Shown here piece after piece: positions 11,279 to 41,646 of a DNA stretch of 64,000 nucleotides; within the stretch, counting starts at the first letter, position 1; every line of letters begins with the position of its first letter. The notes beneath the pieces were generated by a model. That model had not been told where the DNA came from. It saw only the letters and a list, made by a program, of their open reading frames with translations, and ran no database searches. A program made the position numbers and the translations under genes. This DNA is from Amaurobius ferox. Its lineage: Eukaryota > Arthropoda > Arachnida > Araneae > Amaurobiidae. Location of the stretch: NCBI GenBank assembly GCA_951213105.1, contig OX578152.1, forward strand, positions 95,292,568-95,356,567, in the 5' to 3' direction.

Positions 11279-11290
11279 ACACAAGAGCCC

Positions 11291-18745: not shown

Positions 18746-18804
18746 CCCGGCCGTCCAAATAGTTGCTCAAGTCCTCGGGATGAGTCGGACGGTCTGGGTC
18801 TTCA
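18746..18804 (+). mobile_element. Short hairpin retroposon, copy E (59 bp)
   Basis: Full unit in SINE-tail orientation: outer stem GGCCGTCC with GGACGGTC, inner stems CTCA/TGAG and TCC/GGA, 3' end CTGGGTCTTCA. The 3' flank begins ACACA as in the other copies. No clean target duplication remains. It lies within the 7.3-kb hAT-type insertion. Confidence 0.8.
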
Positions 18805-20500
18805 ACACATTCATGTTTTTAACATGTATGAATATAAATTATTTCGGGCCGGATCAAACCGAGACTCAATAGTCTTTGGGCAGGGTTTAAGCACTGGTAC
18901 AGTCGTACCAGACAGGGAAAAAATCTAAATTTTCAGCCCGTTCTGACCCGTATTGGAACCACTGCTGATCTTTTTGTATAGTTTAGTATTTCATTCACAA
19001 TTTGTGATTTTATTTTATCGCAGAAAATTTATTTAAATGACGTATGAATTGTTAAATGATACCTTTAAAAGCACAAAAATTTTATAACAAAATTTAAAAA
19101 AGGAATAAAAATAAATAATAATCATTATGAGAAACGTATATAAACAATTCTTATGCATGCCTTTAAATAATTTAAAAATACTATCTTACTTTACGCGGTC
19201 ACAACACAGCTCTGCGAAAAATTGAAGCAATCTGGGCTGAATGAAGATTCCATGCTTTTCAGCATTCTACAGAAAATGCATTCACATTTTCTGAGGGTCA
19301 TAAATTACTTGCCCAATTAAAGACACTTTTAAGGGAATGCATACTGGGTTTGCTTTCCAAATCCCTGGACAATGTGTTTCAGTATTTTTCTCCTGCTGTT
19401 TTGCCGATTGCATAGCGAAGAAAATAGATTTTTTCCGAAGAACTCTTACGAAGTACTACAAATGATTTTCCGAAGTACCACAAATGATCTGCACCCTCCG
19501 GGCGCAAGGTCTGCTTCTCCGAATTTCCTCAAGTAAAAGGCCGAAAAAGATTGGGGACTTCCTAGACCGACCTCGTTATCATCGCCCTTCCAGGTGGCTC
19601 AAATGTATTTAAATGAGATTTATGACACCGCAAAGAAACCATTTGCCCGACGTTCATCAGATGGCTTTACTTCAACATGGACTTCAAGGATTTTGTTTCA
19701 CAAGAGAATCGGTGATTTTGTAGTGAACATTTAGAAAATTAAAGTAAAATATAAGTTTTTGAAATTTATGGTGAACAAAACTCACACTTATTCCGATTTT
19801 TTTTTCCGAGTGATTGCCAAATTTTCTGACTTTTTTGAGTCAGGGGGGGTGTGTGACACCCCCCCACCCCCACCCCCCCCCCGGTACTTACGTCCTTGTT
19901 TGCATCATTTAAAATGTTTGTAATTGTTTTGTATATTATATAGAAAAACTATTTTTCAAACATATTATTAATGAAATAGAAGGCTATTTTGCAGCAATAT
20001 GGGGAAAAACGGTATTAGTGCGCGATTTTTCCTCGTGCAATATATTCCTATCTTTCTTTCTGGTAGGTTGGCATCTATGCATTTTTTATATCAATCCCTG
20101 AAATTAATGTGATTCATACTTTTTTTTATTATTACCATGGCTGTCTAGCTCACCCAAAGGGTGTATATGAGTTTCAAGGGTATGATTTATATTTTGTCAA
20201 AGCGACAAGAAAAGGAGTAGCAACTATAAAACAAAAATTTATTATTGACTTGCAAGTACTGAACCCTAGCTGCTAACTCTGCATTTCTTCGTGAAGCTCC
20301 AATGTTTGCACTGACTGTCAATCTCCGGACAAATATGCAAATTCCTCCCCCCCCCCCTTCTCTTTTTATTTAAACTTTTAAGATGAATATAGTAAACAGA
20401 TTTTAAAATGAAATTCCATACTTTAACGAAATTGGCCACAAAAAGTGACTAAATTTCGCTCAAGATTCCCTTATAATATTTTAATTTTGAATGTATTTAA

Positions 20501-21114
20501 CCCCTTGCCTGTGCCACCCGAATCCAGTTCGGGCAACCTCTCTGTGCCAAATTTGGAATGCCCGAACTGACTTCGGGCAAGCGAAAAATCAGTGTTTCTA
20601 TTCCGTTGATCCCGAATTGAGTCCGTTTTGCTTTATCAAATGCTTTACAATATAATTCATTTCATTGTTTGTCCAATAGATGGCGATACTTGTCCACATT
20701 TTTTTCGGTAGGCAAGGATCAGCTAGCTTGATTAGGTGGGATATAAACCGAGTTTATTGTAAAGAGTGTGATGTCGGCTTGTGTGCTGTGTCATATTTTT
20801 CGTATATATCATACTATAAAAGATTTGCGAAATTCTGAAAAATGATTCTGTGAAATGATTTATGAAATTCAAAAGATTATTTGATTTATTTTGCTATAAT
20901 TAAACAATTTTGAGTAAAATATGAATATAATCCATTAATTTTCCACATATATGTCAAAATATTAAATATAGTAGTTATTTCATAGAAAAATTTATATTTT
21001 TACAAAATAAAATTTTTCTAACCTTTTTAAATGTTATAATGCACAAAACTGAAGCATAAAATTTTTTTTCCATTTTTGACACATTTTCCTAAAATATACT
21101 CCACAGGCAAGGGG
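20501..21114. mobile_element. piggyBac-type MITE (614 bp)
   Basis: Perfect 13-bp inverted ends CCCCTTGCCTGTG / CACAGGCAAGGGG are flanked on both sides by TTAA (20497-20500 and 21115-21118), the signature of piggyBac transposition. A subterminal word TTCGGGCA is repeated in both orientations near 20527-20580. There is no transposase, so the element is non-autonomous. It carries a CTCF-like 15-mer at 20673-20687. Confidence 0.92.
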
Positions 21115-22089
21115 TTAATTCTTATATTTGTAAATAATATGAGAAAGAATATATGGAAATGTCACTAAAATGTGCATTTATACGTAATTACTAGTTTATC
21201 CTGTTTTATTATCACATATTTTACATTTTTGCAATTTGTTTTCATCAATTAAAACTTTTATATTAATTGCTATTTTAACTCAGGAAAATTAATTTTCAAG
21301 CATGAAATGAAGGGGTATTGGGGCAATGATTGTACGAGATGACCATAATTGAAAATTGTTAAATAGAAGTTTATGTTTTTAATTTGTTGTTTTTTATGTC
21401 CTTTTTGCCAAGCAAAAACAAATTAGCAATTTTTCAATGTATTTTCTCTTGGGTTTCTTTATCAGTTTATTTTAAATTTTAAGAAAATTTAAAACAATTT
21501 TTAATACGAAAATCTGAATTATTCTTTGTTTATATCTTTAATAAAAATGGACATTTAAAAAATAGTTATTATTGTTAGAGATGTAAAAATGGCAACTAGC
21601 CATGTCTATTTGGCACTTAGTCAAAACTATAGGCGTCACATGATGCCTAGTTCAAATTTTTAATTTCTAACACTGCTTGCACCCCATCAGACTGCGGATA
21701 AAAATGCATTACTACACAAATATTATTAACTAACTAAATCACTAGACATTTTCTAAATATAGAAGGCTTAAAAAAAGATCATAGATCGACATGCTGATTG
21801 GCTCTATATACCCCTGTTTCTTCTATTTGTGCCCATTTTGACATCTTTCTGACTTCAGCTTTGTTAGTTCTTTAGCAGTGACAAAGGGGATCTAGCATAT
21901 CTTCAAAACTGCTATATACTGCATTTTTATTTTGAAACAACTTTTGTATAAAGAAAACTTCGAAATCTGCCATTTTTTCTTACGCCAAGGAAGAGTGTTT
22001 TGAAAAGTCCTAACTAATGCCATGTTAGGTTTTGTGCATAACAAATATAAAAATATATAATTAAAAATCAAAAATTCATAAAAACGTAA

Positions 22090-22490
22090 TGCATAAATAT
22101 AAATAAGTATAAAATAATGTATAAAAAAAAGACGATACTTAGAAAAAAAAAATAATGTATAAAAAAAAGACGATACTTAGAAAAAAAATTGTGCTTAATG
22201 AAATTTCAAAAGAACGATACTTAGCAAAAATATTAACACTTTAACAAAATTTTTAAAAACAATTCTTAGAAAAAAGATTATACTTTAACAAAATTTTAAA
22301 AAACAATGCTTAGAAAAAATATTGTACATTAACGAAATTTCAAAAAAATCTATGCTTATAAAAAATATTGTGCTTTAACGAAATTTAAGAAATAACGATA
22401 CTTAAAAAAAATTTTGCACTTTAAAGAAATTTAAAAAAAACAATACTTAGAAAATTTATTTAGTTTAAAGAAAGCTTAAAAAAAATGATA
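22090..22490. repeat. Minisatellite, period about 46 bp
   Basis: About nine diverged units follow the pattern (aaatattgtactttaacgaa then atttcaaaaaa-cgatacttaga). The first two units contain an exact 41-43 bp duplication. Strong A-strand bias. Confidence 0.7.
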
Positions 22491-23366
22491 TGTCTCACAT
22501 GACTGTTTGTGCGACAACTGCATGGACGTAACATGAAAATCATAAAATTTAATACAGTCAAGGCATTAAACTTTAAATTACCCGCTAAAACAAAGTAGAA
22601 GCTATGCTTAAATCAAAATCAAAACATAGTAGTACCTGGTTTACTGAAATCCAAAACTTTTCAAAGAAAAACACTTGTAAATATCCAAATTGCACAAGTT
22701 GCTGTTTCCACATTGCGGCCATCAGAGAACGATCATTCGTATGTAAATTTTCTGCTTCTACATTATTTTATCCATTAACATGTGCTATCTTTCATGTTTG
22801 TATGATATTTACATTTTTAATGCATTTTTACACACAAAGCAACAACACAACTAAAATAGAATTGCTGAAGCGGAAGATAACAGAAAGCTAAAAGAGGTTG
22901 CCAGAAAAACAGGTAGCTGGAAATTTCATGCCACATTTGGCAATTTATCTCTCCAGAAATAAAGATCATCAAATCCAAATTCTTTTTCTCAAAGCTGTAC
23001 CTTTATTTTATTTATGCTTGAATACATTGCTGCAGTTTTCTGTATTCTTTGTGCAAAATATTTTTTTATTTTAATACTTATTGATTACTACTTTTTATTC
23101 AAACTTTAAAACTTAGCTATGGTAATTTATTAAAAATTTTAAATTAGCACTTTGCTTGGGGGTATGGGTTCGGTGAGATAGCACAGTTTTTGAATTCAGG
23201 ATATGTCATTGTGGAGTGGATAATATATTACATCTGATGTATGGGTTAAATTGATATTTGCATTAACTGTGTAAAATTTGTGTTATTCAATAAAACCTTA
23301 ATCAAAGAGTATAAATTTAGAACTAAATTTTCATTTTATTGTACATTGATATTTTGTATTTTACAG
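22491..23366 (+). other. Sequence upstream of Vps18 exon 1
   Basis: No coding evidence; the frame at 22604-22891 has no domain. If the acceptor at 23365-23366 is used, this is the 3' part of a 5'-UTR intron. If not, it is the promoter region. I see no convincing TATA-Inr pair. Confidence 0.5.
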
Positions 23367-23367
23367 A

Positions 23368-23451
23368 ATGGCTTCCTTATTTGAACAGTATGAACAAGCT
23401 GCTTCATTGTCTTCAGGCTATATGACAGGAAAGCCTGTTATTCCTGAAATG
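23368..23451 (+). CDS. Vps18: Vps18 coding exon 1 (partial gene)
   Basis: First coding exon of the vacuolar sorting protein Vps18 (Drosophila deep orange), a core subunit of the HOPS and CORVET tethering complexes acting in late endosome and lysosome fusion. It encodes 28 residues starting MASLFEQYE, close to the MASILDQYE-type start I know for animal Vps18. The ATG has A at -3 and G at +4. The exon ends in phase 0 at a strong donor (ATG|gtatgt). Directly upstream lies a pyrimidine-rich tract ending ttacag (acceptor AG 23365-23366), so the ATG probably sits one base into an internal exon, with the 5' UTR start further left. On its own the exon would be weak evidence. The identification rests on in-phase joining with exons 2 and 3, which match the conserved N-terminus. 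The rest of the roughly 1000-residue protein (beta-propeller, clathrin-repeat region, RING) lies beyond the window. Confidence 0.85.
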
Positions 23452-23631
23452 GTATGTATTTTAAATTATCTATGGTCTTGAGATATATACTGCATATTGT
23501 CTTTTTACTGTTATTATCATATTATGAGTGCCAATTTTCTTATTTATATATAAAATAAGTTTTATTCTTGTGTATATTACTCATTTATATTACTAAGATT
23601 TAATAAACATATTTATTTTTAAGTACAGTAC

Positions 23632-23720
23632 AACCTCGAAAATCCGGACTTTGCCGATTACGGATTATCGATTTTTCCAGATTATAGAATTTGAATAAAA
23701 TTCAGATTTCATATTAACTA
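23632..23720 (+). mobile_element. pogo/Tigger-like terminus (left)
   Basis: CAGTACAACCTCGAAAATCC follows a TA and resembles the terminal repeat of Tigger/pogo elements. An inverted counterpart ending ..GAGGTTGTACTG|TA lies at 51452-51471. Whether these are ends of one element or of two copies is open; no transposase was seen. Confidence 0.55.
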
Positions 23721-24648
23721 AATACACTATAAAACACTATTTTTAGTAGAAATAATGGCAAAACTTAAGTTAATCAATTAAAATATATTATTTAATCTAA
23801 AAAATAGGGCAAAAGAAATTTCTAAGAAAAAATATACACATTAATAATTTAGAATGTGTGAACGAAACGAAATGATAAAAATACATTTTATCATTTCGTT
23901 TAAATATTTGAATTAACATTTGTTATTTCATTAATTTTGGTTTATGGTAAAGCAGTTTTCTTTATTCTGTAGATGGACATTATTTCTGCTCGGTTATAAA
24001 GCTTCTTTGTTCAAGACCTTTAATTGCATGATCGATTATTTGCATAAAATTATCAATGGGTATTTTTTTCTTCTCCACATTTATCGTCGCTACGTTGATC
24101 TTTTTTTATTTAATATCATATCACGAATTTCACCTTTACTCTATTTATGATTGGTGTATCATCATCACAGTGCAGAACTTCCGTTATATCGGCTTTGTCG
24201 AGATTTAATGAAGCGCTGGAAGATTTAATGAAGTACTGAGATTTAATAAAGGTCGAGGATTAGCACTTTTGATGATATATTTAAAGGTGTAAATGTGTTT
24301 AAACCGTTTTCACTGTTAATGAACGAAACACCAAAAATAAGAACTTAAAAGTTTGATTTATTTTCTAGTATCTTTATAATGTTATGTTTAAAAAGGCTGA
24401 TGACTCTGAAAAAAGTAAAAACTTTATTAGTATTAGTCAAATATGTAAAAAATATCGCAGTAGATAAAATAAATATCTTTTCCAAAAAAGAAAAATATCT
24501 GTCCTCTCAATGATTTTTCTGAATTACGATGAGTCATTACTAGATTGCAGCAGCAGCGGGACGTGGTGGTGCAGGGAAAGCGAAGAAAGGAATTTGCTTA
24601 GTTCCTTCCTAATCGTAAATGCAGCCGACCCCTTTAAGAGGTGTGTGT

Positions 24649-24708
24649 TGAAAGCCCAGACCACACGACCAGCCCGAAGGCTTATGGTAGCTAATTATGT
24701 GGCCAGTG
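24649..24708 (-). mobile_element. Short hairpin retroposon, copy D (60 bp)
   Basis: On the minus strand the outer stem is GGCCACA/TGTGGTC and the inner stem is AGCC-TTCG-GGCT with a UUCG-type loop. The 3' end is CTGGGCTTTCA. Flanking direct repeats are agaggtgtgtgt (24637-24648) and agaggtctgtgtgt (24709-24722), which differ by a two-base gap. Stem bases differ from the other copies but still pair. Confidence 0.75.
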
Positions 24709-25238
24709 AGAGGTCTGTGTGTTAATGACCTTGTTGCTCAGTTCTGTGTGATACGATATTATTAAGTTATTTATTTGCTATTTATAGTATGTAAATATGG
24801 CTTTCTAAACGAAAAAGGCGAAGTATACAATCAATTTGAAGCTGACACGTTCGACGAGAACGAAAAAAAATTGTCAGATATCGGGAGGGGGAGGAGATTC
24901 TGAAGACAAAACAGAATACATTGAAGAATGGAATTCGTACTCCGAAGTGAACAAAATAAATTTCCGTGAGGGTTAATATGAATTTTTGGGATTTTTAGAT
25001 TTAATTGAACAATCTGTGATAAAATGTTACGATAACATTTTAAAGTGTTTAATATTAAAAATTATATTGTTTCAGAAAAATGTCTTTTTCAATAATTAGA
25101 AAAGGAAATTTTGATAATAAAAATTCCGTATTTAAATAAAGATGTATATTTAATGCGAAATAATTCATCGGGAGTTGTGACTTGAATAAGGGGGAGGAGG
25201 GATTAACGCTAACAATGTAATTCATGCTCTAACCATGA

Positions 25239-25376
25239 GCCAATCGCATGTTCTGAAAACGTACCCGCTATACCCCTGGCTGTGAGGCCGATTCATTGCT
25301 ATTGGCTAAGTTAAATGATGTCATGTGCGGAGCCTAGTATACACTTTGAAGTTGTCGTCTTCGAGATTATACATGT
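25239..25376 (+). repeat. Promoter-like dispersed repeat, left copy
   Basis: About 140 bp, alignable to the reverse complement of 51093-51243. It contains a CCAAT box (GCCAATCG), a second inverted one (TATTGGCTA), a CRE-like aatgatgtcat, a GC-rich ggagcctagtatac and, downstream, atttag|gtaagt, which resembles a first-exon donor. It may be the promoter of a transposon. Confidence 0.65.
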
Positions 25377-26139
25377 AAAAAAATGTTTGTTATTAAATCG
25401 GGAAGAAAATTGTGATAAAAAGAAATAGTGCAAAGATATAACGTTGTGTGACAATATACGTTCGTAAAACTACAAAAATGTCTTAAATTTAGGTAAGTAG
25501 TATATGATATATTTATTACAATTTTTGCGAGTAAAATGTTGACACTGGAATGTTATACCTTATACATCTGTAATAATCCGATTGAATGATTTTCTAACTT
25601 ATTTTTTATAGTACCTAATTTTAGACTGAAGATCGCCGACCAAATATGAATATATCAAAACTTGTACTACAATATTTCACCTGGCCTATTTAAATAACTT
25701 AAGTGGTCAGATGTTTTTATTGTTGTATCAGTTAAATTAAAGGAGAAACTTTGATTTATTTCCTTCTAGGCTAATTAAATTTGTGTAGAAGATAGCAATA
25801 TATTTTTTAATCTGATTCATAGTTAATTTGTTTATCACAGTAGTGTGCTTTAGTATAAGAGTGAAAAGATGTTATACAAATTAATGAAATTACTAATAAA
25901 ATTAATATATATTCTATATGTATATACCAAGTTGTAATTTAAATAGCATATATTTGAAGTTTCATTTCAATTGTATGGGTGTTGATTTTGAGATTTTATT
26001 GATATTATTAAGTAACATTCTGAAGAAAGCAAACACTAATAGCCATTATCTAATGTTTATGAAATACTTTGAAGTTTGATCTGTACCCAGTAGTGAAATT
26101 GTGTACAAAAAAAAAATATTAGGAAAGCAAGTTTCGTGC

Positions 26140-27837
26140 TGTTTCCACGTCCCAAGCTTAGGGTGACGAATTGTTTGAAATTTACAGTCGCCAATGACCG
26201 CCGCGAGCCTTCAGAAATCTAATTTCTACCTGGGCAGCATTAGTGGAGCGAAAGAAAGTGAGCTTTTTCAATGGAAGGAAGTTTTAAAGGCATGCAAGCT
26301 CGAATAAGAGAACATTTTCCAGAAGCACTATGTTCATTGTAGTTCTCATTTCCTGAACTTAGCACTCTGCCATTCATGCGAAGTTGTTAGAATAAGAAAT
26401 TGCATTGGCACTGTTAAAGCCGTGGGAATTTTTTTAAAATCTTCATCTAAAAGAACAGGGTGTTTAAAAGAAAACATTGAATCTAACTTTCCTGAAACAA
26501 AATGGAAAACTTTAACAGCTATGTGCAAAACAAGATGGGTAGAAAACCACGATAGTCTTCTAAAATTCAAAGAAATCTACAAAGCTATTGTAGAATCTTT
26601 AGAAGATTTAAGCTTCAATCCTGATGTAGATACGTCTTCGAAAGCATCATTGTTGCTAAAATCTATTTTATCAAGCGAATTTATAATCAGTTTGTGCTGC
26701 TTATCTATGCTATTTTCATACACTCTGCCTGTGTGCAAAATGTTACAATCTCCGCAGTGTGATTTATCTGGAGCTATGCAACATGTAGACTTACTGCAAG
26801 AAACTTTTGCTGACATAAGGGTAAATATAGAATCGAGGTTTTTAAACATTTACAAATGTGCTGAACATTTGTTGCACTCTGTAAACGAAGAAATTAAAAT
26901 TCCATGAACAGCATCGAAGCAAAAATACCGAGCAAATATTTGTACATCGAATTCTGAAACTTATTTTCGAATTGCAATAGCTATTCCATTTTTTGATGAT
27001 TTTGATAATCAAATAAATAACAGATTTTCCAATTATAAAGCCACATTAATTACATTAGATCAGCTAATACCATCTGTTTGTTACGATGAAAACACAGTGT
27101 TCAATGTAGAAGCGTTACAATTGTACAAAAACAGGTTGCAGTGGGACACTTTAGAACTGGAATACGAAATGTGGAGAAAGAAATGAGTGTTGATAGACCT
27201 AAGTGTGCCATTACAGCTTTGAATGAATGCAGTGCAGATTTTTTCCCCAATATTTTTTGTTTATTAAAAATTTTATGCACCCTCCCTGTAACCACTTGCA
27301 CCTCTGAAAGAATATTTTCGACATTGAAAAGGATTAAAACTTACTTTCGAAATTCAACAAGTCAAGAAAGACTAAATGGACTGGCATTGATGTCAGTTTA
27401 TAGAGACATTGAAATTGACAATGAAGATGTGATAAATGTGTTTGCTTTAAAAAAAGCAAGAAAACTAAACTTTGTCCTTTGAGTGAGTTTTGAATATTTT
27501 TCATAAGTCATCAGACATTTAGAAATTTAATTTTTTTTTTATTCCAGATATTTCATTTGCATTATGTAATTGCATATTTTTATTTTTTATCACTATTTCG
27601 ATTGCTTATCTACTTATTTTCTTTTCGTTTGACTACTAAAAGGTAACTATAAAAGATATGTAAATATTATTTTATAATATTGTATATAATTAAAAAAATT
27701 AAATTCAAAAATATTTAAAACACTTTTTTTCGTAACTTCTTTTTCTAATTGCGAAACATCTTTTTATGTGTGTACATACGCATGTACGTAACATGATTTC
27801 TCTACCCCCCCCAAATTGAATTTCTGGGTACGGCCTT
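26140..27837 (+). pseudogene. hAT transposase pseudogene 1
   Basis: Decayed transposase of the ZMYM/THAP12-related hAT group. From 26311 it reads HYVHCSSHFLNLAL, the Cys-His catalytic-region signature. From 26422 an open stretch of 161 codons includes CKTRWVENHDSLLKF. A TGA at 26905 replaces the usual Arg in a P-R-T motif, followed by YFRIAIAIPFFDDF. The frame then shifts near 27181 and continues to 27480 with FPNIFCLLKIL and TCTSERIFSTLKRIKTY, the C-terminal hAT dimerisation domain. The N-terminal part with the zinc finger is missing or unrecognisable. A hAT-like right terminus (ctgggtacggccttg, with an adjacent C run) ends near 27837. At least one stop and one frameshift make it inactive. 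Confidence 0.9.
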
Positions 27838-29407
27838 GTCTATACCCAGTAGTGAGCTGCCAAATTTTTAACCACCAGTAAGCTATTATGCAAGATAATG
27901 GTTTCAAATGCTATCATTCTTCGCAGTTCACACTAACATAATATACATTTATTGTGCGTTTAAAATTCATTTGGTGTTCGAGTTAAAATTATTTACATTT
28001 TAACTCTGTTGTTGTTGTTTCTTATGACCTCCTGATTTTGACGAACATTTTAACTCTTAAACATGTTTATTTCAAATTATGTTTAAAATTTAACAACCAA
28101 TATTTAAACTTTGGAAATGTTTAATAACAATTACATGTGTATTATCCTACACTTTGAATTTTGAATATACAAAATTTCGATATTCAAATTTAAAAGGCAT
28201 GTATTGATACATCATTCAAATTTTTCAGAACATTTCTAATTTAACTCAACGTTAATTCAGTTAAAAACCTCTTTACACTTGCTATTCTGTATAATACATC
28301 TGAAATATAAAACCTGAAGTTTTATTCTTCAATCTCTTGAATAATTTCAGTTTGAAACATTTAGTCAAAATACTATTAATTTCTAAACTCAAATTTATTT
28401 ATTTGAAACAAATATTAATTTCAATATCTTTATTACTTCAACAACTATAATTTGATTTAGATAATATATTACTATCTAATGTTACCGAAATACTTTAGCA
28501 TCGGTTGGACGCAGTGATAACTAGTCAAACTTTTAACTGGTATATGTATTTTCAGCTTCATTATATCTCATTACATCAGGATAAATCAGATAACATCAGT
28601 ATTAACTAGGTAAGTCAATTTGCATCTATTCATGCATCCTAGGATATCAAATCCATCTTCATATAAAATTAAATTAGTAACTACTGTCTATTATTTTCAA
28701 AAACAGCATTCAGTAAGTTGATTTAAAATATCTGTTGGATAAACTCCTTCTTTATAAACATGTTATAAATTGAAATTAGTTAATATCATGCAACATTATT
28801 ATGCAGTTAAAGTTGTTCAAACAGATTGTACTGTTAAATAGAAAATGCATATTTTTAACTATAGTAAAGCACTATTTATCTATAGCACTTATAACACTAC
28901 TCTAGGGACCAGTGAAGTAAAGCGTATACCTGTGAAAATATGTAATTGAAATTAATGTCACTGGATAGGGATGTTTGACGAGCTATGTAGAAATGCATAT
29001 AAATGATGTATGTACTGTATTTCAAATATTTGAAATTTAATATTCACTGATTAAAATGGAAAATTAGACTATATACGATTTAATAAAATATTTGAAACAT
29101 TTTTATGTAAATAAAATTAAAATTTGTTTTGATTTGACAACAAATTATGAATTTTATACAAATATTGAAATTTAAATATAACTATCCATATTTCATTATC
29201 TGAAGATACATTCAATTGAGTAATAGAAAATTAGTACTAACTTTTGAATCATTTGTGAGATATCAGTGATTACAAATGTACACATGCTTATCTCAAAAGC
29301 ATTCAATTCGAAAATAAGAATATTTAAAACAAAAACATGTAAATTCATTGATAGTTCAAATATTTGATCCTATTACAATATTTTACTTTAACGTTAGTAT
29401 TATGTGT

Positions 29408-29470
29408 TGAAGACCCAGACCGTCCGACTCGTCCAGAGGACTTAGAGTAACTAGTTGGACGGCCGGGAAG
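29408..29470 (-). mobile_element. Short hairpin retroposon, copy A (63 bp)
   Basis: Flanked by perfect 15-bp direct repeats gttagtattatgtgt (29393-29407, 29471-29485). On the minus strand it folds as GGCCGTCC/GGACGGTC (one G-T pair) with inner ACTC/GAGT and TCC/GGA, and ends CTGGGTCTTCA. It has no promoter-like head and no coding capacity. This is the cleanest example of the stand-alone unit. Confidence 0.9.
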
Positions 29471-29716
29471 GTTAGTATTATGTGTGTAACAGTAGCGTAG
29501 TGTCCCCAGGCAATTCTTTTTTTTTTGAGGAAGAGGAGGGGGGGGGGGGGGATTGAATTGGTAACCAAACAGTTTGCTTCTCATTTTGCTAAATATCATT
29601 TCTATGAACTTAAATGGGTTTCTAGGGAATATGATTTCCCTACTTGGTAATGATATCGGTGGATAGAGGCAAAAAATATTTCTTAAATATATATCTATAA
29701 TTTTAAAAAAATCAAG

Positions 29717-29941
29717 GGTACTTCCTTATTATAGCGGCCCCTGAGGGTGAATCACCAAGCGTCCGAGATTTATCGCCAGGGTAGGTTGTAAAACCTCACC
29801 AAACGTTTGCAGTCCTAAAGAAACAGCACGTGTTTATATTATTGTCATATTACTTTTTCGTTAACGAAAACCTTGGCGAAATCTTAACTGCGACCTTGGC
29901 TCAATCAGATTTATAGGAGCCACTATAATAAGATAGTACTG
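29717..29941. mobile_element. 225-bp MITE with inverted ends
   Basis: The left end (ggtacttccttattatagcg) and right end (cactataataagatagtact) are imperfect inverted repeats. They are flanked by direct repeats aatcaag (29710-29716 and 29942-29948; an eighth base mismatches). The 7-8 bp duplication suggests a hAT-type MITE. Confidence 0.7.
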
Positions 29942-32418: not shown

Positions 32419-32697
32419 ACAACTTACAAGGCCGCCTTGAAGAAAGCAAGCATATGTCAGTTAGGTGACTACAATTGGTTCATGGTCATTTTAAGCCCCT
32501 TCTTCAGGCCAAAAGAACAGTATCCGCCCTTAACAACCGCCAAGAACGAACTGTCCAACGAATGGCAGTAGTGGTTGTTAAGTGCTCATACGGTTATTTT
32601 GTCCTGAAAAAGAGGGATTATAATGCCATCGAAGCAACTGTAGTCACCTAACTGACATATATATGCTTTCCTCAAGGAAGTTTTGTAAGTTATTGTT
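32419..32697. mobile_element. Foldback element, about 280 bp
   Basis: The left arm (32419-32545) and right arm (32572-32697) are imperfect inverted copies. Both carry atgtcagttaggtgactaca (inverted on the right) and a cttaacaaccrc word near the centre. Non-coding. A hAT-like terminus (cataggcgccgag, 32337) lies just to the left. Confidence 0.75.
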
Positions 32698-32714
32698 TTA
32701 CAAGCAGGTGTTTT

Positions 32715-32923
32715 GGAGTGAGATAACCGAGTGGTTAAGTCACAGGATTGTACTCGGAGGACCCGAGTTCTGTTTTTGACTTTGCCTAAACTGTTCTCGT
32801 GTACGAGCACGTTAAATTTGTGGGTTTGAAAGTCCTTCCAAGCGATTAGATGGCATTGTCTCGGCGGTCTAAACAGATATCTTACACCTTCGGATAGGTC
32901 GAACGGGCTGGGTCGAAAGAAAG
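32715..32923 (+). mobile_element. tRNA-headed SINE, degraded copy
   Basis: Its head resembles a tRNA 5' half (gataaccgagtggttaag, A box), with a mutated B box (acccgagttct). Then come a core (cacgttaaatttgtgggt..aagtccttcc) and a tail (taggtcgaacgggctgggtc) shared with the 5S-headed SINEs. No target duplication was found; the tail stem no longer pairs well. Confidence 0.65.
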
Positions 32924-33039
32924 ATATCAGCAGTTTTATTTATTATACGATAAATATTTTTAATCTTTTTAGGCCTATTTTTATTTGTAAGCTAAGCTAA
33001 GAGTTGATTAGGAAAATCCATATAGTTACTACCCAACTA

Positions 33040-33535
33040 GCACACTTCCGTTTTTAATTCGTTGAAAAATCGGAACCCAGTTTCGTTTTTATTTCGTTGA
33101 ATATGTAACAAAATAAAAACGAAAAGATGTCTCGGCGCTTCCACTATTTTGCAACCAATTTTTAAAACGTTACTTTTTCGTTTTTCACACATTACTTTTG
33201 CATGGAGATTTATATGATAACGATATGTATCGCAAAAGAAACGAAAATGTAACGGAGCGGACGGAAAAAAAACGAAAATATAACGAAAGTTAACGCAAAT
33301 AGAGCGAATATGTAACGAAATATAGAAACGGAAATGTAACGAAACGGACGCAAAACAAACGAAAATATAACGAAATGGACGCAAAACAAACGAAAATATA
33401 ACGAAATGGATGCAAAACAAACGAAAATGTATCGAAAGTTTACGCAAAAAAAACGAGTATGTAACGAATGCTAACGAAAATAAAGCGAATATGTAACGAA
33501 ATATAACTCAAAAGAAACGATTATGAATCGTAACA
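33040..33535. repeat. ACGAAA-type minisatellite
   Basis: One strand is almost entirely built from acgaaa, atgtaacgaaa and gcaaaacaaacgaaaatata words. In the centre (33348-33440) there are three near-exact 31-bp units. The other strand reads as a 136-codon frame that is only a by-product of the repeat. The repeat keeps many CG dinucleotides in an otherwise AT-rich region. Confidence 0.75.
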
Positions 33536-35021
33536 TAGAGAATGCATTAAAAGGATATATTTCCTTCAATCTTTTGTTTCAGTTTTTCCATGCTAGAATA
33601 TGGGGGGGGGGGGGGATTAAACCTCGGGCTATGTCAGTTTTGGGGATTTTTCGCTGCTATTATTTGCAAGGACAGATGTTGAGAAATTCGATAGAGTAAC
33701 TAGATGTATCTCTAATATTTCTGAGCAGCATTAATTTTACAAAAATTTTAGAAACACTTCTCTAATTATTTTATCAATGTTTTAATAAAGCACAAATTTT
33801 CCTCTTTTTAGAATTTATGCCTTGCAAAAAACAACAGGACATATCCTAAAAACTAAATGATATTTAGTACTATATTCCATATGTTACCATGGAAAAACTG
33901 AAACCAACAGTTGAAAGGAAACTATCCTCTTAATGTACGAGTAGCATGCTAAACTGAGTAATGTAACGAATAAGCAAATATTTTTATGCAAAACAAACCA
34001 TTTTAAATAACTTTTATGCTCTGTTAAATAGCATTTTAAATTCTAGAAGAAAAATCCACTAAAAATTACATTTTAAATGTTATTTACGAAACACATCTTG
34101 TGTTTTTTCGTTGGAAAATATTTACATATTCTATTACATGTTTGTTACTGAATTCTGCACATTATTTTTCAGTTTCGTTGATTTGCTTCCTGGTGATTTC
34201 AAGCTTTACCTTGTAGGAGCATATGTTCCAAGTTTCAAATTCGAACATTATTCACATGCAATTTAATTAATATACTAGTGTTAACACTGTTGACTTTTTC
34301 ATATAAAGAAAAATTAACATATCTTTTTTTTTCCAAATTTAAGATTTTAAAAGTGTATACCTTTAGGAGTGTGGACCTTCCAATCTTATTAGATTGCATT
34401 TACCTAAATAAAATCACTTCAGGTAAAATGGAAAACTTTAAAAGTTAAATAATCATTCCTCTTTGTTGTCTACATTTTTCTTAAGCACAGGTGTAAAGAC
34501 TTGATCCCCCCCCTCCTCCACAAAAAAAAAAAAAAACCTGCAACAGTATATAAATGTTTTTCTTCTTTCTCTAGTTCTATTTTAAAATCTACTTCTGAAC
34601 TAGATAGATTGAGACGAGATGTTTTAGCTATCGATGCTATTGAAAATTTATTTCAATGTTTGATCTGTATTTAGCCATGTGATCAGACATAGATTTTATA
34701 ATCCTGACAACAGAAGGCTAAATAAAAAAATATCAGTTTCATTTTAACTTTGTAAATAAAATAATTTTAAGTTGTATTTCATAAAATTTTGAGTAATTAA
34801 CAAATAAAGACATTATAACAGCTTTTTAAAAAGAAATGAGAGTAGTAGTTTTAAAAATATTTTACAAATTATATATATATTCTTTATTTACATGTAACTG
34901 AAATTTTTGATAACTGTTAATTGTCTATTTTAAACAATACAGTATATTTAGATTTGTCCACTAACAAGACTCAACTAAGAATCCTGTTATCGCACATACA
35001 CTTTATACACCATTTAAATGG

Positions 35022-35079
35022 CCCGAACTACCATTCTGCTGCTCATGACTTCAGACGAGTCGATAGTTCTGGGCTTTCG
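35022..35079 (+). mobile_element. Short hairpin retroposon, copy C (58 bp)
   Basis: Flanked by perfect 15-bp direct repeats acaccatttaaatgg (35007-35021, 35080-35094). The outer stem here is GAACTA/TAGTTC and the inner stem GCTC/GAGT; the 3' end is CTGGGCTTTCG. The stem sequence is almost wholly different from copies A and E, yet it pairs at the same place. Confidence 0.85.
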
Positions 35080-35730
35080 ACACCATTTAAATGGAACAAG
35101 TTTTATCAGAAATTAATTTACTTTAATTTTTCAGTTTATAATAGAGTAACATAAAATCAAATCTCTTGTTATATTTACTTTGAATATAAAATGAGAAAAA
35201 ACAATATACTCTGAAATAAAATTAAACATTCGTTCTCTGCTTAAAGTGCGTACTTGTGGAAAGTTTATTCAAAATGACATAAGGTGATAATTGCATAAAA
35301 CCAATTTTGGATTTGGGGATTTATTTTCCATATATAAATTGTATTTTGGAATGATGCCATTTTTGTTGAGCGTGTTAGCTCAATGGAGCTTTTGGAGAAG
35401 TCAACATCATAAGATATTCCCAACTTTTTTTTATTCAAACACCTTAACTGTACTGCTACCATTTTGGGAACCATAAATTGTTAGGCTCATATTTTTGTGA
35501 TATTTTGTAAGAACATATTATTCTCAATAATTAAAGAACAATGTTTGTATATGAGACATAGATATATTAAAAGACTACCCTAATTTAAGAAGCAATTTAT
35601 GTATTCTATTTCCATCACGAAACAGCTTCAACAAAAACAAATAATGTTTCTTGGAATAAACAAAATTAAAATTTTTATTAAAGTAATTCTTCAGACATTA
35701 ATGACTGTAATTTTTCACTCTTGTATACAT

Positions 35731-35772
35731 GCAGTGTACATGAAAATTATAGCAGTGTACATGAAAATTATA
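35731..35772. repeat. 21-bp tandem duplication
   Basis: Two exact units of gcagtgtacatgaaaattata. Confidence 0.8.
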
Positions 35773-36110
35773 GCAAGATTTAAGGTTTAAGTTAAAAATA
35801 ATAATAAGGTTTCGAACTGCACACAAGACTCTGAAACAGATATTTTATTTAAAAATATCACAAAACTTTATACTAAAATTGAAAAACATCTAAAATATGC
35901 TTAAAAAAGAGAAATAACTTTTATTCAAAAATATACTTTAAGATGAATAGCAAACCATATATTTTTTATTTTTAAAGCATGATCAATGAGTTTCTGTTTG
36001 GAATCTGTAAGTTGATATCGGTTAAAGATATTTAGAAGTAATTTCCATAGATTTTAAGACAATTGTTTTATTGACGAGCAAGGTTGGAGACGTCATTGCG
36101 GTAGAAATTT

Positions 36111-36545
36111 GCTGTATTCAAAAATCCAAAATTTGCTGTATTCAAAAATCCAATACAGCATGCTTCATATCATTATTCAACTAGAAGCAATGTCCTTTTC
36201 ATGTCTTTTTCAATAGACTGAAGAAGTAAAAATTGCAAGGAGAGAGTTCTGAAGAGAGATCTACGGTTGCTTCAGTCTCAGTTTTAAAGGCTTGCAATCT
36301 GTTCTGCACAAGAAGTGGGTGTTCAACACATGTTCTTTACAACACCATTGTGGTCAAACTGCCACCATATTGAATATATGCTATCATAGCCTATTGAATT
36401 TCTTTGGACATGGAGAGGTCAAATGCTGTCATTGCATGATTTGTAACCATGCTATGGATTTGTAACCATACTATGCACCAGATTTCATCACCAGCTACAA
36501 TGAACTCCAAGACTGTGTTGCTTTCCATGTTGAAACTCAGCAAGT
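36111..36545 (-). pseudogene. mariner transposase fossil
   Basis: On the minus strand, in order: LEFIVAGDEIWC (first catalytic Asp block), later LQAF...TVDLSSELSPCNFYFF (third block, normally SPDLSPCDFYLF; the catalytic Asp is Asn here), then LLKKT.KGHCF and NDMKHAVLDF, as in mariner C-termini. Several stops and frameshifts and the lost Asp make it a fossil. Its 3' end carries a short tandem duplication (tgctgtattcaaaaatccaa, near 36109-36155). No terminal repeats were found. Confidence 0.7.
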
Positions 36546-38715
36546 GTTGCAGACAAACTGCTATACAGTAGGGCCTCTGATTACTACTGACAGCTCACAG
36601 GATCCACCATCAGCGCACTTTGCTGTATCCTAGGCTCCATATGATAATTCTATCAGTTCCATAGCTCCACCATCATCCTTTTTATGTTACTTTCACGGTG
36701 TTTCTAAGAAAACAAGAGACATAAATATCTTTAAAAATGAAGCAATTATATTTGTTAAAGATTATTAAACAATTAATTTATGTTACAGATAGGTTTGAGT
36801 ATTGTTTGTTTAAACATCAAGGATTTTTCTCAAGACATATGTAGAGCTTAAAAAAAATAACGCAGTTGTCAGACAAAGTATTTTAGCTTGAAAATAAGTT
36901 CAAATTTTGTTTGGTAGAATAGAAAAACAATTTTAATTCTTTCTTAGACAGTTGAAGTAAGACATATATAGAAATTATTACATGTTTACTTTAAAAAAAA
37001 TTTCTGCTTATATTTTTATTTTCTTTGTGTAGATCAAATGTATTTATTTTTTACATCTTGATGTTATTGTATTCGTGTAGTATTACATTTATAATAACAT
37101 TTATTTCTTTTAATATCCTCAGTAAAGATGCACACATTTATACAATTTTTTTTTAAAAAGTTAAATATACTAAAGAAAAAAAAATTAAGCTTTAATTACA
37201 AAAATGTCTTATGAAATAAATTATACTCTTAAAAGCTTTACTACTGAGTACTTTCTAATAAGGTATTTGACTATTTCTTAGACTGAATACTTTTGATCAG
37301 TATAAACATATGTTAAAAACAAATTAAAATTTATTAATGCTGGGCTTTTAAAAGTAATTAATACATATTTTAATGGGACATGCAAAAGAAATGCATATGA
37401 TTTGCTGATTATGGTTCTCTTTCAGATAATAAATTCAGTATTTGGCAAATAGCTATTTGTTGTATCCCAAGTAACTACTGTATATTTCTGAATATAATCC
37501 AATCAGTATATAAGCCAAGTCGAATATGTAATTGTAATGTAAGAAATTTGATTAAAACTGTAAACTTGTATATAAGTCGAATAATAATAAAAAAAAAAGA
37601 ATAAGAAGCATCGGCAAATGTGTGAACGACGAACTATCACAGCCAACCAAATCACATAGTTATGAGGGCATTGTTGATAATGAAAGATAATGACATAGTC
37701 TGTTCAGGTTGCTGTGTGAGATCGTCCAGTAGGTTGTGTCAGTAGATGTTCTGGTATATGATTGCCTCTGATTTACTTGTGAAAATAGCACCCACAAAAC
37801 AATGGTTTCATTGTGCTGTAGTAAGTATGAGATAATATTTTTATTAAATTGTTCTTCACTTTTGAAATTACCAGTTCCAAAATTTTCAGCTTTTCAACTT
37901 CTGATATTTTTGCCACGCAATCCAACAATATAATGGCTCGCCTAGTTTTTACCGAGTTTGTTATTTGGAAATCGAAATTCAAAATTTATGTAAAAAAAAG
38001 ATTATATAAAATTCATTAAAAAGAGACAACAGAATATGATCAATAAGAAAAATAACATATCGAGCTGTAACATGTATTCCACAAACTTATTTGGAAAAGA
38101 ACGCTCAAGTTAGGCCTCCATCCTCCAGAAACATCCAACCACATGCTAGCATTGAATGATGAATGTGATGTCACAATCTCAACATGTGCAGCTTAAAGGT
38201 TATAAATTATGCCTAACTATGTAAGAGTGAATGCTTATTACTTTATTATTGCATAAACAAATACACTTTGTTGCAAAAAATATATGCACCCATAAGAAAT
38301 TGAGCTACAGCCGTGAAACTCGGCATGAAGGTATTATTTGAGGAGATATGTAAGTGATTAGAATTTGGCGTAACCCTCTAAGTTCAGGTTCCCTTGTTTC
38401 AACAAACAAAGAATCTAACGTTTCAACTAGTTGTTCATATCGTGAGGAGATTCTTTCACAAGTCCGTCCATGTGAAAGCCAGCAAGAGGTGGACACTTTA
38501 ATAATTTTCAGCATGTTTAAATTGTATACGTTTCCTTGAATTTCTTTAAAAATTTCACCCTTATTTGGGCTATAATGGAACATTTCCCACAAAACTAAAA
38601 GTGAGTCAACTGATTGAAGATTGATTGTCATATTTCTTTAATAAGTGAACGAATACTAAAGCTAATCTGTGGTTTCTACAATTTACGTAGATACAATGAA
38701 GTAAATGTTGTTTCT

Positions 38716-39539
38716 TGTTGGAAAATTTAAAAATTTGAAGATGAACAGCAAAGTACGCACTGGCATAGAGTCAATAAGTGTTGGCTGGGTCATAAAAGTA
38801 CACAGATCCAGTTTCAAAGAAAAACATTGTTCTCTTTATTTCGTGAGAAACATAACTAGGCAAATTACACATTCCAGGTAATTTTCCATGCCACAAAACT
38901 TCAAAATATACTATGTACAAAAAGTTTGCAGTTGTAAATAATCAGACAGAGATTCCTTGAAGCATTGGTAGTAAGTAACTATACTACCTCTATCACTTGT
39001 GTGTATTTCCAGCCACCATCGAAGGTATCACACTTGGCAAAGGAAAACCAAAGGATAAGACATCAGAAAAATATTTAAAGTGACTTCCGAACGTTTGTAA
39101 GTAAATTTAACGTTCAATACATACTGGTCTAAACTGACCACATCTGCATCCGTCTCGACTAAAAACCGTCGTCAAACGATATCCCGCAGTGCTTCTGCCT
39201 AAAGCATTTCTGTCTGCCTGCATCAGACTATCAGCATATGTGTCTAATCGATCGTCGTGATCGGATTAAGTCTTCTGATTGAGTCGTCTAAAGTCGTCTG
39301 CTGAAGTCGTCTGATTGCTTCAAGAAACCTCTGCCCTATATATCCGAGAATGGATACTTCCGGAAACGCCCCCGGATATGCAAATCAGATGCGTACGCAT
39401 TGAGAACTGATTTGCATGAAACCTCATGTTGAAAAACGTCACGGTTCACGCCGGTGAACGGAAAGAGTCGTTCATATTAAATTTGCATAAACGCCCGTTC
39501 ACGGGAACGTGAATTGCGATATATTGATTTTTTCCAACA
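38716..39539 (-). mobile_element. Solo LTR (824 bp)
   Basis: On the minus strand it begins TGTTGGAAAA and ends TTTTCCAACA (TG..CA with inverted ends). It has a TATA-like word (ggatatatagggc, about 39333-39345) and a polyadenylation signal (aataaa, 38834-38839) in the right order for U3-R-U5. The U3 part carries three octamer words ATGCAAAT (39378-39385, 39410-39417, 39481-39488). Flanking bases gtttct and gtttaa agree at four of six positions, a weak target duplication. No internal retrotransposon sequence was found. It sits inside the hAT pseudogene between conserved motifs, which independently fixes its ends. Confidence 0.82.
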
Positions 39540-39691
39540 GTTTAATTCGACGTTGAACACCTGAAAGCTCTCCGCTCATTACATTGGTTCCCTCTAAAAC
39601 TATAAATAAACAATTGAACAGCTTAACATTTTTTGCTACAGTTGTTTTCTCAATAGCACTCATAATTTTTTCAGCATTGATAGTAGTTAAG

Positions 39692-40061
39692 TTGTTGTTG
39701 TTGAGACCCAGACCGTCCGACCTACCAGAAAGGTGTAAGGTGACTGTTTGGACGGCCGGGAAGTGCCACCCAATTTAGACCGGAACCCAGTGGGGAGGCA
39801 TCCACAGGGACTGTACCCTCCTTCCCTACCACCAACCTCTCGGAAGGACTTACGGACCCACATGTTTAACGTGATTGTACTCCGCATGAACACGGAGGCA
39901 GTTGTGGCAGCATGCAAACCACCGGGCTACAGCGCCCGAAATGTGCCAACAGCACAAGGTGTTCCCAGGTGGTCACCCACCCAATTACTAACCGCGCCCG
40001 ATGCTATTTGACATCGGTGATCTAACGAGAACCGGTGTTTTCTGCACGGTAGGGTCGTTGT
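39692..40061 (-). mobile_element. 5S-rRNA-headed SINE, copy 2
   Basis: Same layout as the copy at 10898. It has a 5S head (39944-40061, read on the minus strand), the core with cacgttaaacatgtgggtcc (one or two differences), the tail hairpin GGCCGTCC/GGACGGTC and a (AAC)n end. Target duplications are gatagtagttaag (39679-39691) and ggtagtagttaag (40062-40074), 12 of 13 identical. It is inserted in the hAT pseudogene. Confidence 0.9.
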
Positions 40062-41530
40062 GGTAGTAGTTAAGTGTACAAGTCCAAGGTACTTTTCTTT
40101 AACATTCTCATCGCCCTACATTTGGTAACGTACTATTATACCTAGCTGATCACGTTGAGATTCATCAATCGACTCGTCAGCCAAAATTGCATAAAATTCT
40201 GAACATGATAATTCAGTTAAGGTTTTTTGTTCAATGTAAGTAGAAATGGAATATAAGATATTGTCAACAGATATGCTTAATAAATGAGTTGCAATTTCTT
40301 TATCCTCTAAATTTTCACCTAAAAATCTTACAACTGACCCAAAATTTTCAAATACCGCCCACTGTTTTTTAACCATGAAGTATAAGATTTCGACACATTT
40401 GCTTAATAAATAACCTTCTATTGAAATTTGTTTTTGATTGTTTCACAGCCTCTGTGCCTTCAGTATTTTTTTTAGCAATTTCTTGTTTGTCGGCATCCTT
40501 TGGAAAGGCAATAGATTGTTTATGTCTATTACTATTTTCAAGCTTCTTTATAGTTCTGGTAGGATGACCTCCCTTCAAACTCACACCAACACTTGTTCAC
40601 TTGTTCAACACTTGTTATTACCACTGTACCCAATGGAACATATTTTACATAAAAAGCCTGAAGCTGCTAGACTAGTAAAACCAGTTATACTGTCTTTCAT
40701 AATATGTTTTTATGAAATAAGATTTTCTTTTTTTACTGTTTTCTGTAGTTAACAACATATCATCTATATTTTCTTCATCAGAAATATATAGATATTTTCT
40801 TATCTATATTTTCTTCATCACCTCATTATCAGAACCTTGTCATCACCTCATCATCAGAAAATTCAAGTCCAACGTCAATATTTTCTTTTATATCGTTTTC
40901 ATTTTAAGTATTCTTTTCTACATCATTTTCAGCATTCTTTTTACATCATTTTCAATTTCAGCATTCTTTTTCAAATTCACTGCATTTTCTCCTATAGAAA
41001 AATTCAACCTCATCTTCATTCGATAATTCAGTTGCACTGTTTTCTGCATTCCTCTTTACATAATATTTGGCGTCACTTTTCTGAATGAAATTTGTCGTTT
41101 CAGATGCGCTCTCTACTACTTTATCAGCATTCCGATTTGTAGAAAATTTGGTTGTAATTGTGGAAGTATTACTTTTCTAATCTGCTTGGAACTTGCTTTA
41201 TGGAAAAAAAAATGTAGGATGCTCTCACAACCACTGCTATCAGCACAACTGATTTTTTTTTACATAATAATCTGAATTTTTTTAGAAGCCCCAGGTTGGA
41301 GGACGTCTACTCTTCATAATATTTGGAGTATCACTAACTTTATCCGAAAATAATTATTGTTAATTTAAAATAAAAACTAACTAAACTAATTAAATAGAAC
41401 TGAAACTATGACGATGATGCTTCACCCTCACCCAGTGGTCAGCGAAGTAAAGGCAATCTGCCATTAGGGGGTTTGTATGCCTAACTGAAACTAAATGCAA
41501 GACCAAACAGCAAGCAGTGTTGCCATATTA

Positions 41531-41571
41531 CTTCCCAGACTGTCCAACCTACCAGAAAGGTGTAAGGTAAC
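41531..41571 (-). mobile_element. Truncated SINE tail fragment
   Basis: About 40 bp matching the tail loop and 3' stem of the 5S-headed SINE (accttacacctttctggtag on the minus strand). It abuts the left target repeat of copy B. Confidence 0.6.
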
Positions 41572-41587
41572 CGCGAATTGGCTGTGT

Positions 41588-41646
41588 TGAAGACCCAGAC
41601 CGACCGGCTCGTCAGCAAGGACATGAGCAACCGATTAGTCGGCCGG
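41588..41646 (-). mobile_element. Short hairpin retroposon, copy B (59 bp)
   Basis: Flanked by perfect 15-bp direct repeats gcgaattggctgtgt (41573-41587, 41647-41661). On the minus strand the outer stem is GGCCGAC/GTCGGTC and the inner stems are GCTC/GAGC and GTC/GAC; the 3' end is CTGGGTCTTCA. Confidence 0.9.

What the first reader, a model, noticed from the sequence alone, without database searches (positions are those of the whole stretch)
18746..41646. Ultra-short (58-63 bp) stand-alone retroposon with covarying hairpin
Five units (18746-18804, 24649-24708, 29408-29470, 35022-35079, 41588-41646) have the same borders, and four are flanked by 12-15 bp direct repeats, three of them perfect. 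All fold into one outer stem plus an inner stem. The outer stems differ but still pair: GGCCGTCC/GGACGGTC (A, E), GGCCGAC/GTCGGTC (B), GAACTA/TAGTTC (C), GGCCACA/TGTGGTC (D). Inner stems covary too (D has AGCC-TTCG-GGCT). All end CTGGGYYTTC. Discrete 5' borders argue against random 5' truncation. Typical SINEs are 100-500 bp. Here the mobile unit seems to be just the structured tail that a LINE reverse transcriptase would recognise, possibly in many sequence subfamilies. Compensatory change between copies implies selection on RNA structure. The family interpretation is inference; the repeats, borders and stems are seen directly.
Basis: partly seen in the sequence, partly recalled or inferred. 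Interest (0 to 1): 0.87.

Follow-up and report, generated by a model that had tools for sequence, protein, structure and literature searches.

The report
Sixty-base LINE hairpin tails inserted alone
The five short repeats look like copies of only the last ~60 bases, a structured hairpin, of a retrotransposon that keeps long open reading frames elsewhere in the same genome; in the copies sampled, tail-only insertions start at almost the same base and outnumber copies that keep the element's body, which ordinary random shortening does not explain.

Summary
Five 58-63 bp units lie at the given places; three have perfect 15-bp direct repeats, one an imperfect repeat, one (18746) none. All share one hairpin whose stems co-vary. 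In the genome (3.56 Gb) the hairpin is also the 3' end of a LINE with an RNase H domain: unit 29408-29470 is identical to a LINE-type 3' end 0.66 kb downstream of a protein match in a 1189-aa open frame. I read the units as hairpin-only copies of LINE 3' ends, inserted before ACAC with ~15-bp target duplications.

Random 5' truncation does not fit. Of 60 sampled LINE-type tails with a duplication, 43 start 0-9 nt upstream of the outer stem, 10 inside the hairpin, 2 keep LINE body (396, 486 nt), 5 are ambiguous. Of 1304 exact hairpin starts of the 29408 type, 51 carry the adjacent LINE mark that I could search for. In the SINE-type control, 1 of 40 is a complete hairpin alone.

Inferred: the LINE's machinery inserts a ~60-nt 3' RNA fragment, or stops copying at the hairpin base. 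Whether units also copy themselves is open. New variant of a known kind.

The parts
18746..18804 (+). hairpin-only unit A; no target duplication found
24649..24708 (-). hairpin-only unit B (GGCCACA/TGTGGTC type)
24637..24648 (-). 3' copy of B's imperfect target duplication (ACACACACCTCT)
24709..24722 (-). 5' copy of B's imperfect target duplication (ACACACAGACCTCT)
29408..29470 (-). hairpin-only unit C; identical to the LINE-type 3' end at G000:C18:26770154 (-)
29393..29407 (-). 3' copy of C's perfect 15-bp target duplication
29471..29485 (-). 5' copy of C's perfect 15-bp target duplication
35022..35079 (+). hairpin-only unit D (GAACTA/TAGTTC type)
35007..35021 (+). 5' copy of D's perfect 15-bp target duplication
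35080..35094 (+). 3' copy of D's perfect 15-bp target duplication
41588..41646 (-). hairpin-only unit E (GGCCGAC/GTCGGTC type); identical over the 60 bases compared to L041 and L050
41573..41587 (-). 3' copy of E's perfect 15-bp target duplication
41647..41661 (-). 5' copy of E's perfect 15-bp target duplication
10900..11281 (+). 5S-rRNA-headed SINE whose 3' tail (11213-11280) is the related hairpin
39693..40063 (-). second 5S-rRNA-headed SINE with the hairpin tail (39694-39761)
32714..32921 (+). old tRNA-like SINE (left border approximate) with a decayed hairpin tail (32859-32921)
41534..41573 (-). 40-bp piece of a SINE-type hairpin tail next to unit E; starts inside the hairpin

Best explanation
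The units are hairpin-only retro-insertions of a LINE. Shown in the samples: a LINE family with an RNase H domain ends in this hairpin followed by YYTTCA; many copies of just that 3' terminus sit before ACAC with ~15-bp target duplications; their 5' end mostly lies 0-9 nt upstream of the outer stem; stems change in a compensated way between subfamilies; sampled copies keeping more of the LINE are few. Inferred: the LINE protein binds the hairpin, nicks the bottom strand after TGTGT and reverse-transcribes from the 3' end (target-primed reverse transcription). The border is set because the template is often only the ~60-nt 3' fragment of LINE RNA that survives 5' decay or cleavage (a bound hairpin stopping a 5'-3' exonuclease would give a scatter of a few nt); or, less likely, because the enzyme stops once it has passed the hairpin. 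An insertion leaves an ACAC site at its 3' end, so units and SINEs can pile up in chains.
For: Unit C equals a LINE-type 3' terminus 60/60, the bases CTT before it match too, and that copy is followed by ACAC; a protein match in a 1189-aa open frame lies 0.66 kb upstream on the same strand. RNase H domain in L011, E 7.8e-8. The hairpin model finds the tail in 3 of 4 regions fetched downstream of protein matches; one of them is identical to a free unit. Lengths: 73 distinct LINE-type ends, 60 with a duplication: 43 complete hairpins starting 0-9 nt upstream, 10 starting inside the hairpin, 2 LINE bodies (396, 486 nt), 5 ambiguous (read); swapped-flank control 9/356. C type: 1304 exact 23-mers; ACAC 11-17 nt upstream of CCC in 389+244 matches against 76+40 in a shifted window; adjacent LINE mark AACT in 51. 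ACAC begins both copies of the duplication in 4 of 4 window units that have one. SINE-type control: 20 of 40 clean full length, 8 start inside the hairpin, 1 complete hairpin alone. Pairing: 89.6% against 76.0% under a tree-aware null, 0/500.
Against: No RNA or biochemical data: fragment and binding are inference. The 60 focal loci are early hits on one contig, chosen by an exact 3' end. 13 of 73 ends gave no duplication: 3 are LINEs, one is in a chain, 9 are unresolved; of 9 free hairpins in evenly placed sequence 4 show no repeat's measure. The AACT mark misses LINEs of the L135, L049 and L137 kinds, so 51 of 1304 is not a ceiling for attached copies. The stretch between the 1189-aa frame and the C hairpin was not read. 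With 8 LINE hairpins compared, 26 of 77 free ends score 0.90 or better; units B, D and E do not. In the large set the number of pairs with a double change is not above the tree-aware null (10 against 9.95, 298/500). Unit A has no duplication.
Confidence: 0.8

Rival explanations
1. A self-propagating mini-retroposon: free units are themselves transcribed (by read-through), and the hairpin RNA is retro-inserted by the LINE, so units descend from units.
For: Subfamilies with identical copies at different sites: C equals L047, L052, L070; E equals L041, L050. 40 of 77 free ends have another free end at 0.95 or better, 9 of 77 a sampled LINE hairpin (the 40 include three pairs of loci with identical surroundings). 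AACT-marked copies are 51 of 1304 for the C type.
Against: C and the L010 unit are identical to LINE 3' ends. In the five window units no A or B box above background and no TTTT; their flanks share only weak matches. Only 8 LINE hairpins were compared.
Confidence: 0.15
2. Ordinary random 5' truncation of a LINE or SINE, of which the reader happened to pick the shortest.
For: Truncation exists here: 10 of 60 start inside the hairpin and 2 LINEs are 396 and 486 nt. Published truncated HaSE1 copies range from 75 to 356 bp (PMC3272025, passages).
Against: 43 of 60 start within 0-9 nt of the outer stem, and none is recognisably a LINE piece of 66-395 nt (5 ambiguous rows of 82-170 nt were read by eye). 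SINE tails with the related hairpin rarely show this class (1 of 40).
Confidence: 0.03
3. Abortive reverse transcription (a sub-case of the best explanation that differs in mechanism): the template is full LINE RNA, but the enzyme regularly lets go on leaving the hairpin that its own protein holds.
For: The same sharp border; 8 of 40 SINE-type copies begin inside the hairpin, several at similar points, so structure may stop copying.
Against: SINE RNA with the related hairpin is often copied to full length (20 of 40 with clean full-length repeats); a stop expected on entering a stem is not where most copies end.
Confidence: 0.25
4. The units are cut-off tails of the window's 5S or tRNA SINEs.
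For: Same hairpin architecture.
Against: Units end YYTTCA or YYTTCG without (CAA)n and have other inner stems; the two 5S SINE tails end TCTCAACAAC. Unit C matches a LINE 3' end exactly.
Confidence: 0.02

Closest known systems
5'-truncated LINE copies
   Same: 3' end as in the LINE, target duplications, insertion at the LINE's kind of site
   Different: 5' ends are mostly at the hairpin base instead of variable; a review says most LINE copies are truncated at various 5' positions, 100 to 1,000 bp long (PMC3747384, passages)
SINEs with a LINE-derived 3' tail (stringent recognition, e.g. eel and plant pairs; PMC3747384, passages)
   Same: structured 3' end shared with a LINE, compensatory changes in the stem
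   Different: the units have no RNA-gene head, no body and no pol III box; the unit is the tail alone
R2 and R2/R1 SIDEs of Drosophila (PMC3414825, abstract and passages)
   Same: short non-autonomous elements reduced to what the LINE machinery needs; the R1-site ones have 14-bp duplications
   Different: SIDEs keep a 5' self-cleaving ribozyme and sit in rRNA genes; here no Rfam ribozyme match and dispersed ACAC sites
Tailless retropseudogenes (mentioned in PMC3747384, passages)
   Same: short retro-inserted RNA fragments
   Different: [quoted passage not shown] here the 3' end is fixed and the 5' part is missing
HaSE1/HaSE3 insect SINEs (PMC3272025, passages) and 5S-derived PxSE4/PxSE5 (PMC8010984, passages)
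   Same: tRNA- and 5S-headed SINEs that share body and tail (HaSE1/HaSE3), as in this genome
   Different: sequences were not compared here; truncated HaSE1 copies vary from 75 to 356 bp

Membership tests
SINE | RNA pol III promoter from a small RNA gene | tested here: not met
   no Rfam hit on the five units (permissive search on unit C only); no A/B box above background
SINE | 3' end shared with a LINE | tested here: met
SINE | target-site duplications | tested here: met
   4 of 5 window units; 60 of 73 sampled ends
5'-truncated LINE copy | sequence identical to a LINE 3' terminus | tested here: met
   unit C 60/60; not shown for B, D, E; A best 0.95
5'-truncated LINE copy | variable 5' start points | tested here: not met
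   43 of 60 within 0-9 nt of the outer stem; shifted-window control for one type
stringent-type LINE 3' recognition | conserved 3' hairpin with compensatory changes | tested here: met
   (not every measure exceeds its null: 66/500, 298/500)
stringent-type LINE 3' recognition | LINE protein binds and copies this hairpin | not testable with these tools
   needs biochemistry
SIDE | 5' self-cleaving ribozyme | tested here: not met
   no Rfam match on the units at gathering threshold; permissive search on unit C gave one chance-level hit beside it
AC-targeting non-LTR retrotransposon | insertion at AC-rich sites | tested here: met
   ACAC begins both repeat copies in 4 of 4 window units with a duplication; shifted-window control
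AC-targeting non-LTR retrotransposon | reverse transcriptase clade | not tested
   only the RNase H end was read

The most novel reading that the evidence does not exclude
The ~60-nt hairpin is itself a mobile unit: free copies give rise, at least in part, to further free copies beside those made from LINE RNA, so that this would be, as far as I know (recalled, not searched exhaustively), the smallest retroposon described: a bare recognition tag that parasitises and outnumbers its LINE, with subfamilies evolving under selection on RNA structure alone.
Probability: 0.2. Interest if true: 0.87.

Novelty: new variant of a known kind. Interest (0 to 1): 0.68.

Why it matters
It suggests from genomic data the minimal RNA that a stringent LINE needs for insertion: about 60 nt of hairpin plus YYTTCA. 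If the copies are as many as the samples suggest, the LINE's template choice, its ACAC target and the compensatory evolution of its recognition signal can be read from the genome. Repeat annotation that discards very short hits would miss a class that I put very roughly at 10^5 copies here (9 free hairpins in 190 kb of evenly placed sequence; a small sample). The question of where the 5' border comes from is directly testable with small-RNA reads and one in vitro assay.

Tried and rejected
Considered and rejected. Ribozyme: no Rfam match to the units. Relatives in viral and prokaryote collections: one pattern found nothing; the 7 loci of the other two scored 14-23 bits with the hairpin model, against 58-85 bits for the window's full hairpins, which include the model's own training rows. 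Tails of the window's SINEs: rejected on 3' ends and inner stems. Random truncation: rejected on lengths. A simple motif scan for a reverse transcriptase catalytic box in the window printed none.

Literature. Ten searches were answered, of open-licence PMC papers only; I saw no hairpin-only LINE class in their listings, which does not show that none is in print. Papers seen by passages only: PMC3747384, PMC3414825, PMC3272025, PMC8010984, PMC9191728, PMC4640811; all others by listing only. That Waldo and Mino elements prefer AC-type repeats is recalled, from no call; (TG)n-specific Togen elements in fish are from passages of PMC4640811.

Unfinished: total and LINE-attached counts for the E type (not completed). 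The species was not determined. The hAT remnant has named relatives in aphids and an ant, the LINE RNase H in the spider Araneus ventricosus at 34-44%, and an unnamed one at 61%; an arthropod is likely, no more.

Rows handled by hand; ends with an identical 130-nt context were dropped as duplicates and ends closer than 130 nt to a locus edge left out; two of 12 'trunc' rows (L037, L065; lengths 57 and 59) are misses of the stem finder and were counted as complete; five 'long' rows were read by eye as AC microsatellite (L047, L054), T run (L075), internal insertion (L014), chain (L077). One search kept such duplicates; rows with many gaps in paired columns and identical rows were dropped (68 of 79 kept); nested rows were collapsed, and two places with the same string as a neighbour (C3:105359638, C4:125881714) were left out; five repeat calls of SINEs with body (L096, L115, L124, L126, L133) are internal-repeat artefacts and not counted as full length.
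Full report
What was checked. Three are flanked by perfect 15-bp direct repeats, one by an imperfect repeat; none was found for 18746. A scan of all 436 ACAC sites of the window for 13-nt direct repeats returned seven pairs: these three units, three pairs in the 7.9-8.8 kb tandem region and one pair 293 nt apart; ten shuffles gave 0-2 each. A covariance model built from the eight hairpins finds those eight in the window (58-85 bits, as it must), one further 28-nt stretch at E 0.024, and then nothing below E 1.9.

Three of the eight hairpins are the 3' tails of SINEs: two with 5S rRNA heads (10900-11281, 39693-40063) and one old tRNA-like one (about 32714-32921). The two 5S SINEs end TCTCAACAAC and have other inner stems than the free units, which end YYTTCA or YYTTCG straight before ACAC. 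The 5' copies of the SINEs' imperfect duplications also begin ACAC.

Structure. In the eight window hairpins 9 of 19 pairs have changes on both sides, and none of 500 shuffles reaches that number or the covariation score; the number of further pair types is not above shuffles (66/500). Against sequences evolved without pairing on the inferred tree, paired cells are 94% against 76% (0/1000) and 10 pairs have double changes against 3.4 (3/1000). In 74 distinct genome hits 89.5% of cells pair, at most 50% when the partner is slid. The tree-aware null for 68 of the 79 rows gives 76.0% against 89.6% observed (0/500) and 27 double-changed cells against 67 (0/500); the number of pairs with any double change (10) is not above this null (9.95, 298/500).

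The genome. The window lies in a 3.56-Gb assembly. TCTGGGTCTTCAACAC with up to 2 mismatches occurs 58,117 times, its reversed control 1,069; the SINE-type end CGGTCTGGGTCTCAACAAC occurs 134,684 times, control 6. One LINE 3'UTR motif, GAGTTGGNNTCCGCTAACT, occurs 1,422 times, control 53; other LINE subfamilies have other motifs. In 19 stretches of 10 kb at one fixed coordinate of 19 contigs the model gives 20 hits at E up to 0.05. Reading them: 9 are free hairpins of the non-SINE type, 8 are attached to a SINE body, 1 is a SINE tail cut inside the hairpin, 1 is cut by the stretch end, 1 is doubtful. Of the 9 free ones, 5 show a direct repeat's measure (one of them in a chain) and 4 do not.

Lengths. 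I fetched 60 loci around exact hits early on one contig besides the 8. Of 72 exact ends, 57 have a duplication of at least 11 matches; 42 of these give 56-65 nt, 8 give 28-51 nt, 7 more than 80 nt. Swapped flanks reach that mark in 9 of 356 trials. With identical contexts removed and YYTTC ends included, 60 of 73 have a duplication: 41 start 0-9 nt upstream of the outer stem plus 2 that my stem finder missed, 10 start inside the hairpin, 2 are LINE bodies of 396 and 486 nt, 5 are ambiguous. Of the 13 without a duplication, 3 are longer LINEs, one is part of a chain and 9 are unresolved. SINE-type control: of 40 loci, 20 give a clean full length (285-290 nt with tRNA head, 374-389 nt with 5S head), 8 start inside the hairpin, one is a complete hairpin alone (L097), 2 have other lengths (117, 122), 4 gave no repeat, and 5 gave only internal-repeat artefacts.

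The LINE. L011 has an RNase H domain (E 7.8e-8), a 3'UTR with AATAAA, then GCTAACT, a pyrimidine tract and the hairpin. L049, L053, L063 and L083 have the same kind of 3' end (GTTGG or GTTAG, then a GCTAACT-like word before the tract) with different hairpins. A protein search gives 21,011 candidates; the 150 scored all match, with open frames up to 1213 aa. Four regions downstream of such matches: three hold the hairpin, one does not within 900 nt. Unit C is identical over 60 of 60 bases to the LINE-type 3' end at G000:C18:26770154, the bases CTT before it match as well, and ACAC follows; a protein match in a 1189-aa frame lies about 0.66 kb upstream of it, but I did not read the sequence in between. 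The free unit of L010 is identical to the 3' end in L137. Of 77 free ends (5 of the window, 72 sampled), 9 score 0.95 or better to one of 8 LINE hairpins, 26 score 0.90 or better, and 40 score 0.95 or better to another free end; three pairs of loci with identical surroundings inflate the last number.

Genome-wide counts for one type. The first 23 bases of the C hairpin occur 1304 times, control 0. ACAC lies 11-17 nt upstream of CCC in 389 forward and 244 reverse matches (nested ACAC starts are counted more than once, chiefly on the forward strand), against 76 and 40 in a window 14 nt further up, many of these in AC-rich stretches. In 84 distinct places taken from the 100 rows listed, the implied duplication is 13-16 nt in 67, and 19 carry CTT before CCC. 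AACT 3-7 nt upstream of CCC, the mark of several LINE 3' ends, occurs 51 times, 19 of them exactly AACTTTCCTT; four of the 51 lie 0.6-0.7 kb downstream of protein matches. LINE ends of the L135, L049 and L137 kinds lack this mark, so 51 is not a ceiling for attached copies; the statement about sharp borders rests mainly.

Chains and hotspots. Several loci hold two to four units or SINEs in a row at one site with the same duplication between them (L010, L034, L015). Some units sit inside the SINE's own hairpin at TTACACCTTTCTGGTAG (L058, L070, and L068, whose surroundings equal L072), as does the LINE copy L053. Both fit a need for ACAC.

Reading. The class is real in the samples: hairpin-only LINE insertions with a nearly fixed 5' border. 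That the LINE's enzyme makes them by target-primed reverse transcription follows from the duplications, the shared target and established knowledge of LINEs. How the border arises is inference: a protected 3' RNA fragment is my first choice, abortive copying second, self-copying third. Novelty: new variant of a known kind.

Noticed in passing
window 44247-44420: tRNA-headed SINE sharing the SINE core but with a different hairpin tail (GTGCGGA/TCCGCAC), flanked by AGTTAGGGTATTTGCAG and AGTTAGAGTATTTGCAG, so another LINE partner is possible.
   Followed up: partly
L010, L034, L015, L038, L077: Chains of units and SINEs inserted one after another at the same ACAC site, with the same target duplication between them.
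   Followed up: partly
L058, L068, L070, L072, L053; also C1:12211070 (the same place as L070) and C1:21997975: Insertions inside the SINE's own hairpin at TTACACCTTTCTGGTAG.
   Followed up: partly
L100, L103, L125, L127 and L117, L123, L132: SINE-type copies that start at similar points inside the hairpin (near GTTACC and near CCTTTCTGG), as if RNA structure stops the enzyme.
   Followed up: no
window 18805-18820; L071, L090, C3:9864844: Unit A's 3' flank ACACATTCATGTT recurs at other units, so the target may lie in a repeat.
   Followed up: no
L075: A complete hairpin preceded by a run of about 25 T inside the target duplication.
   Followed up: no
window 26308-27482 (+) and 61095-61649 (-): Remnants of a hAT transposase (Dimer_Tnp_hAT in the second part) and of a DDE_3 transposase; the first hAT part has insect relatives.
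   Followed up: partly
window 7470-9020: Tandem repeat region with copies about 280-300 nt apart.
   Followed up: no
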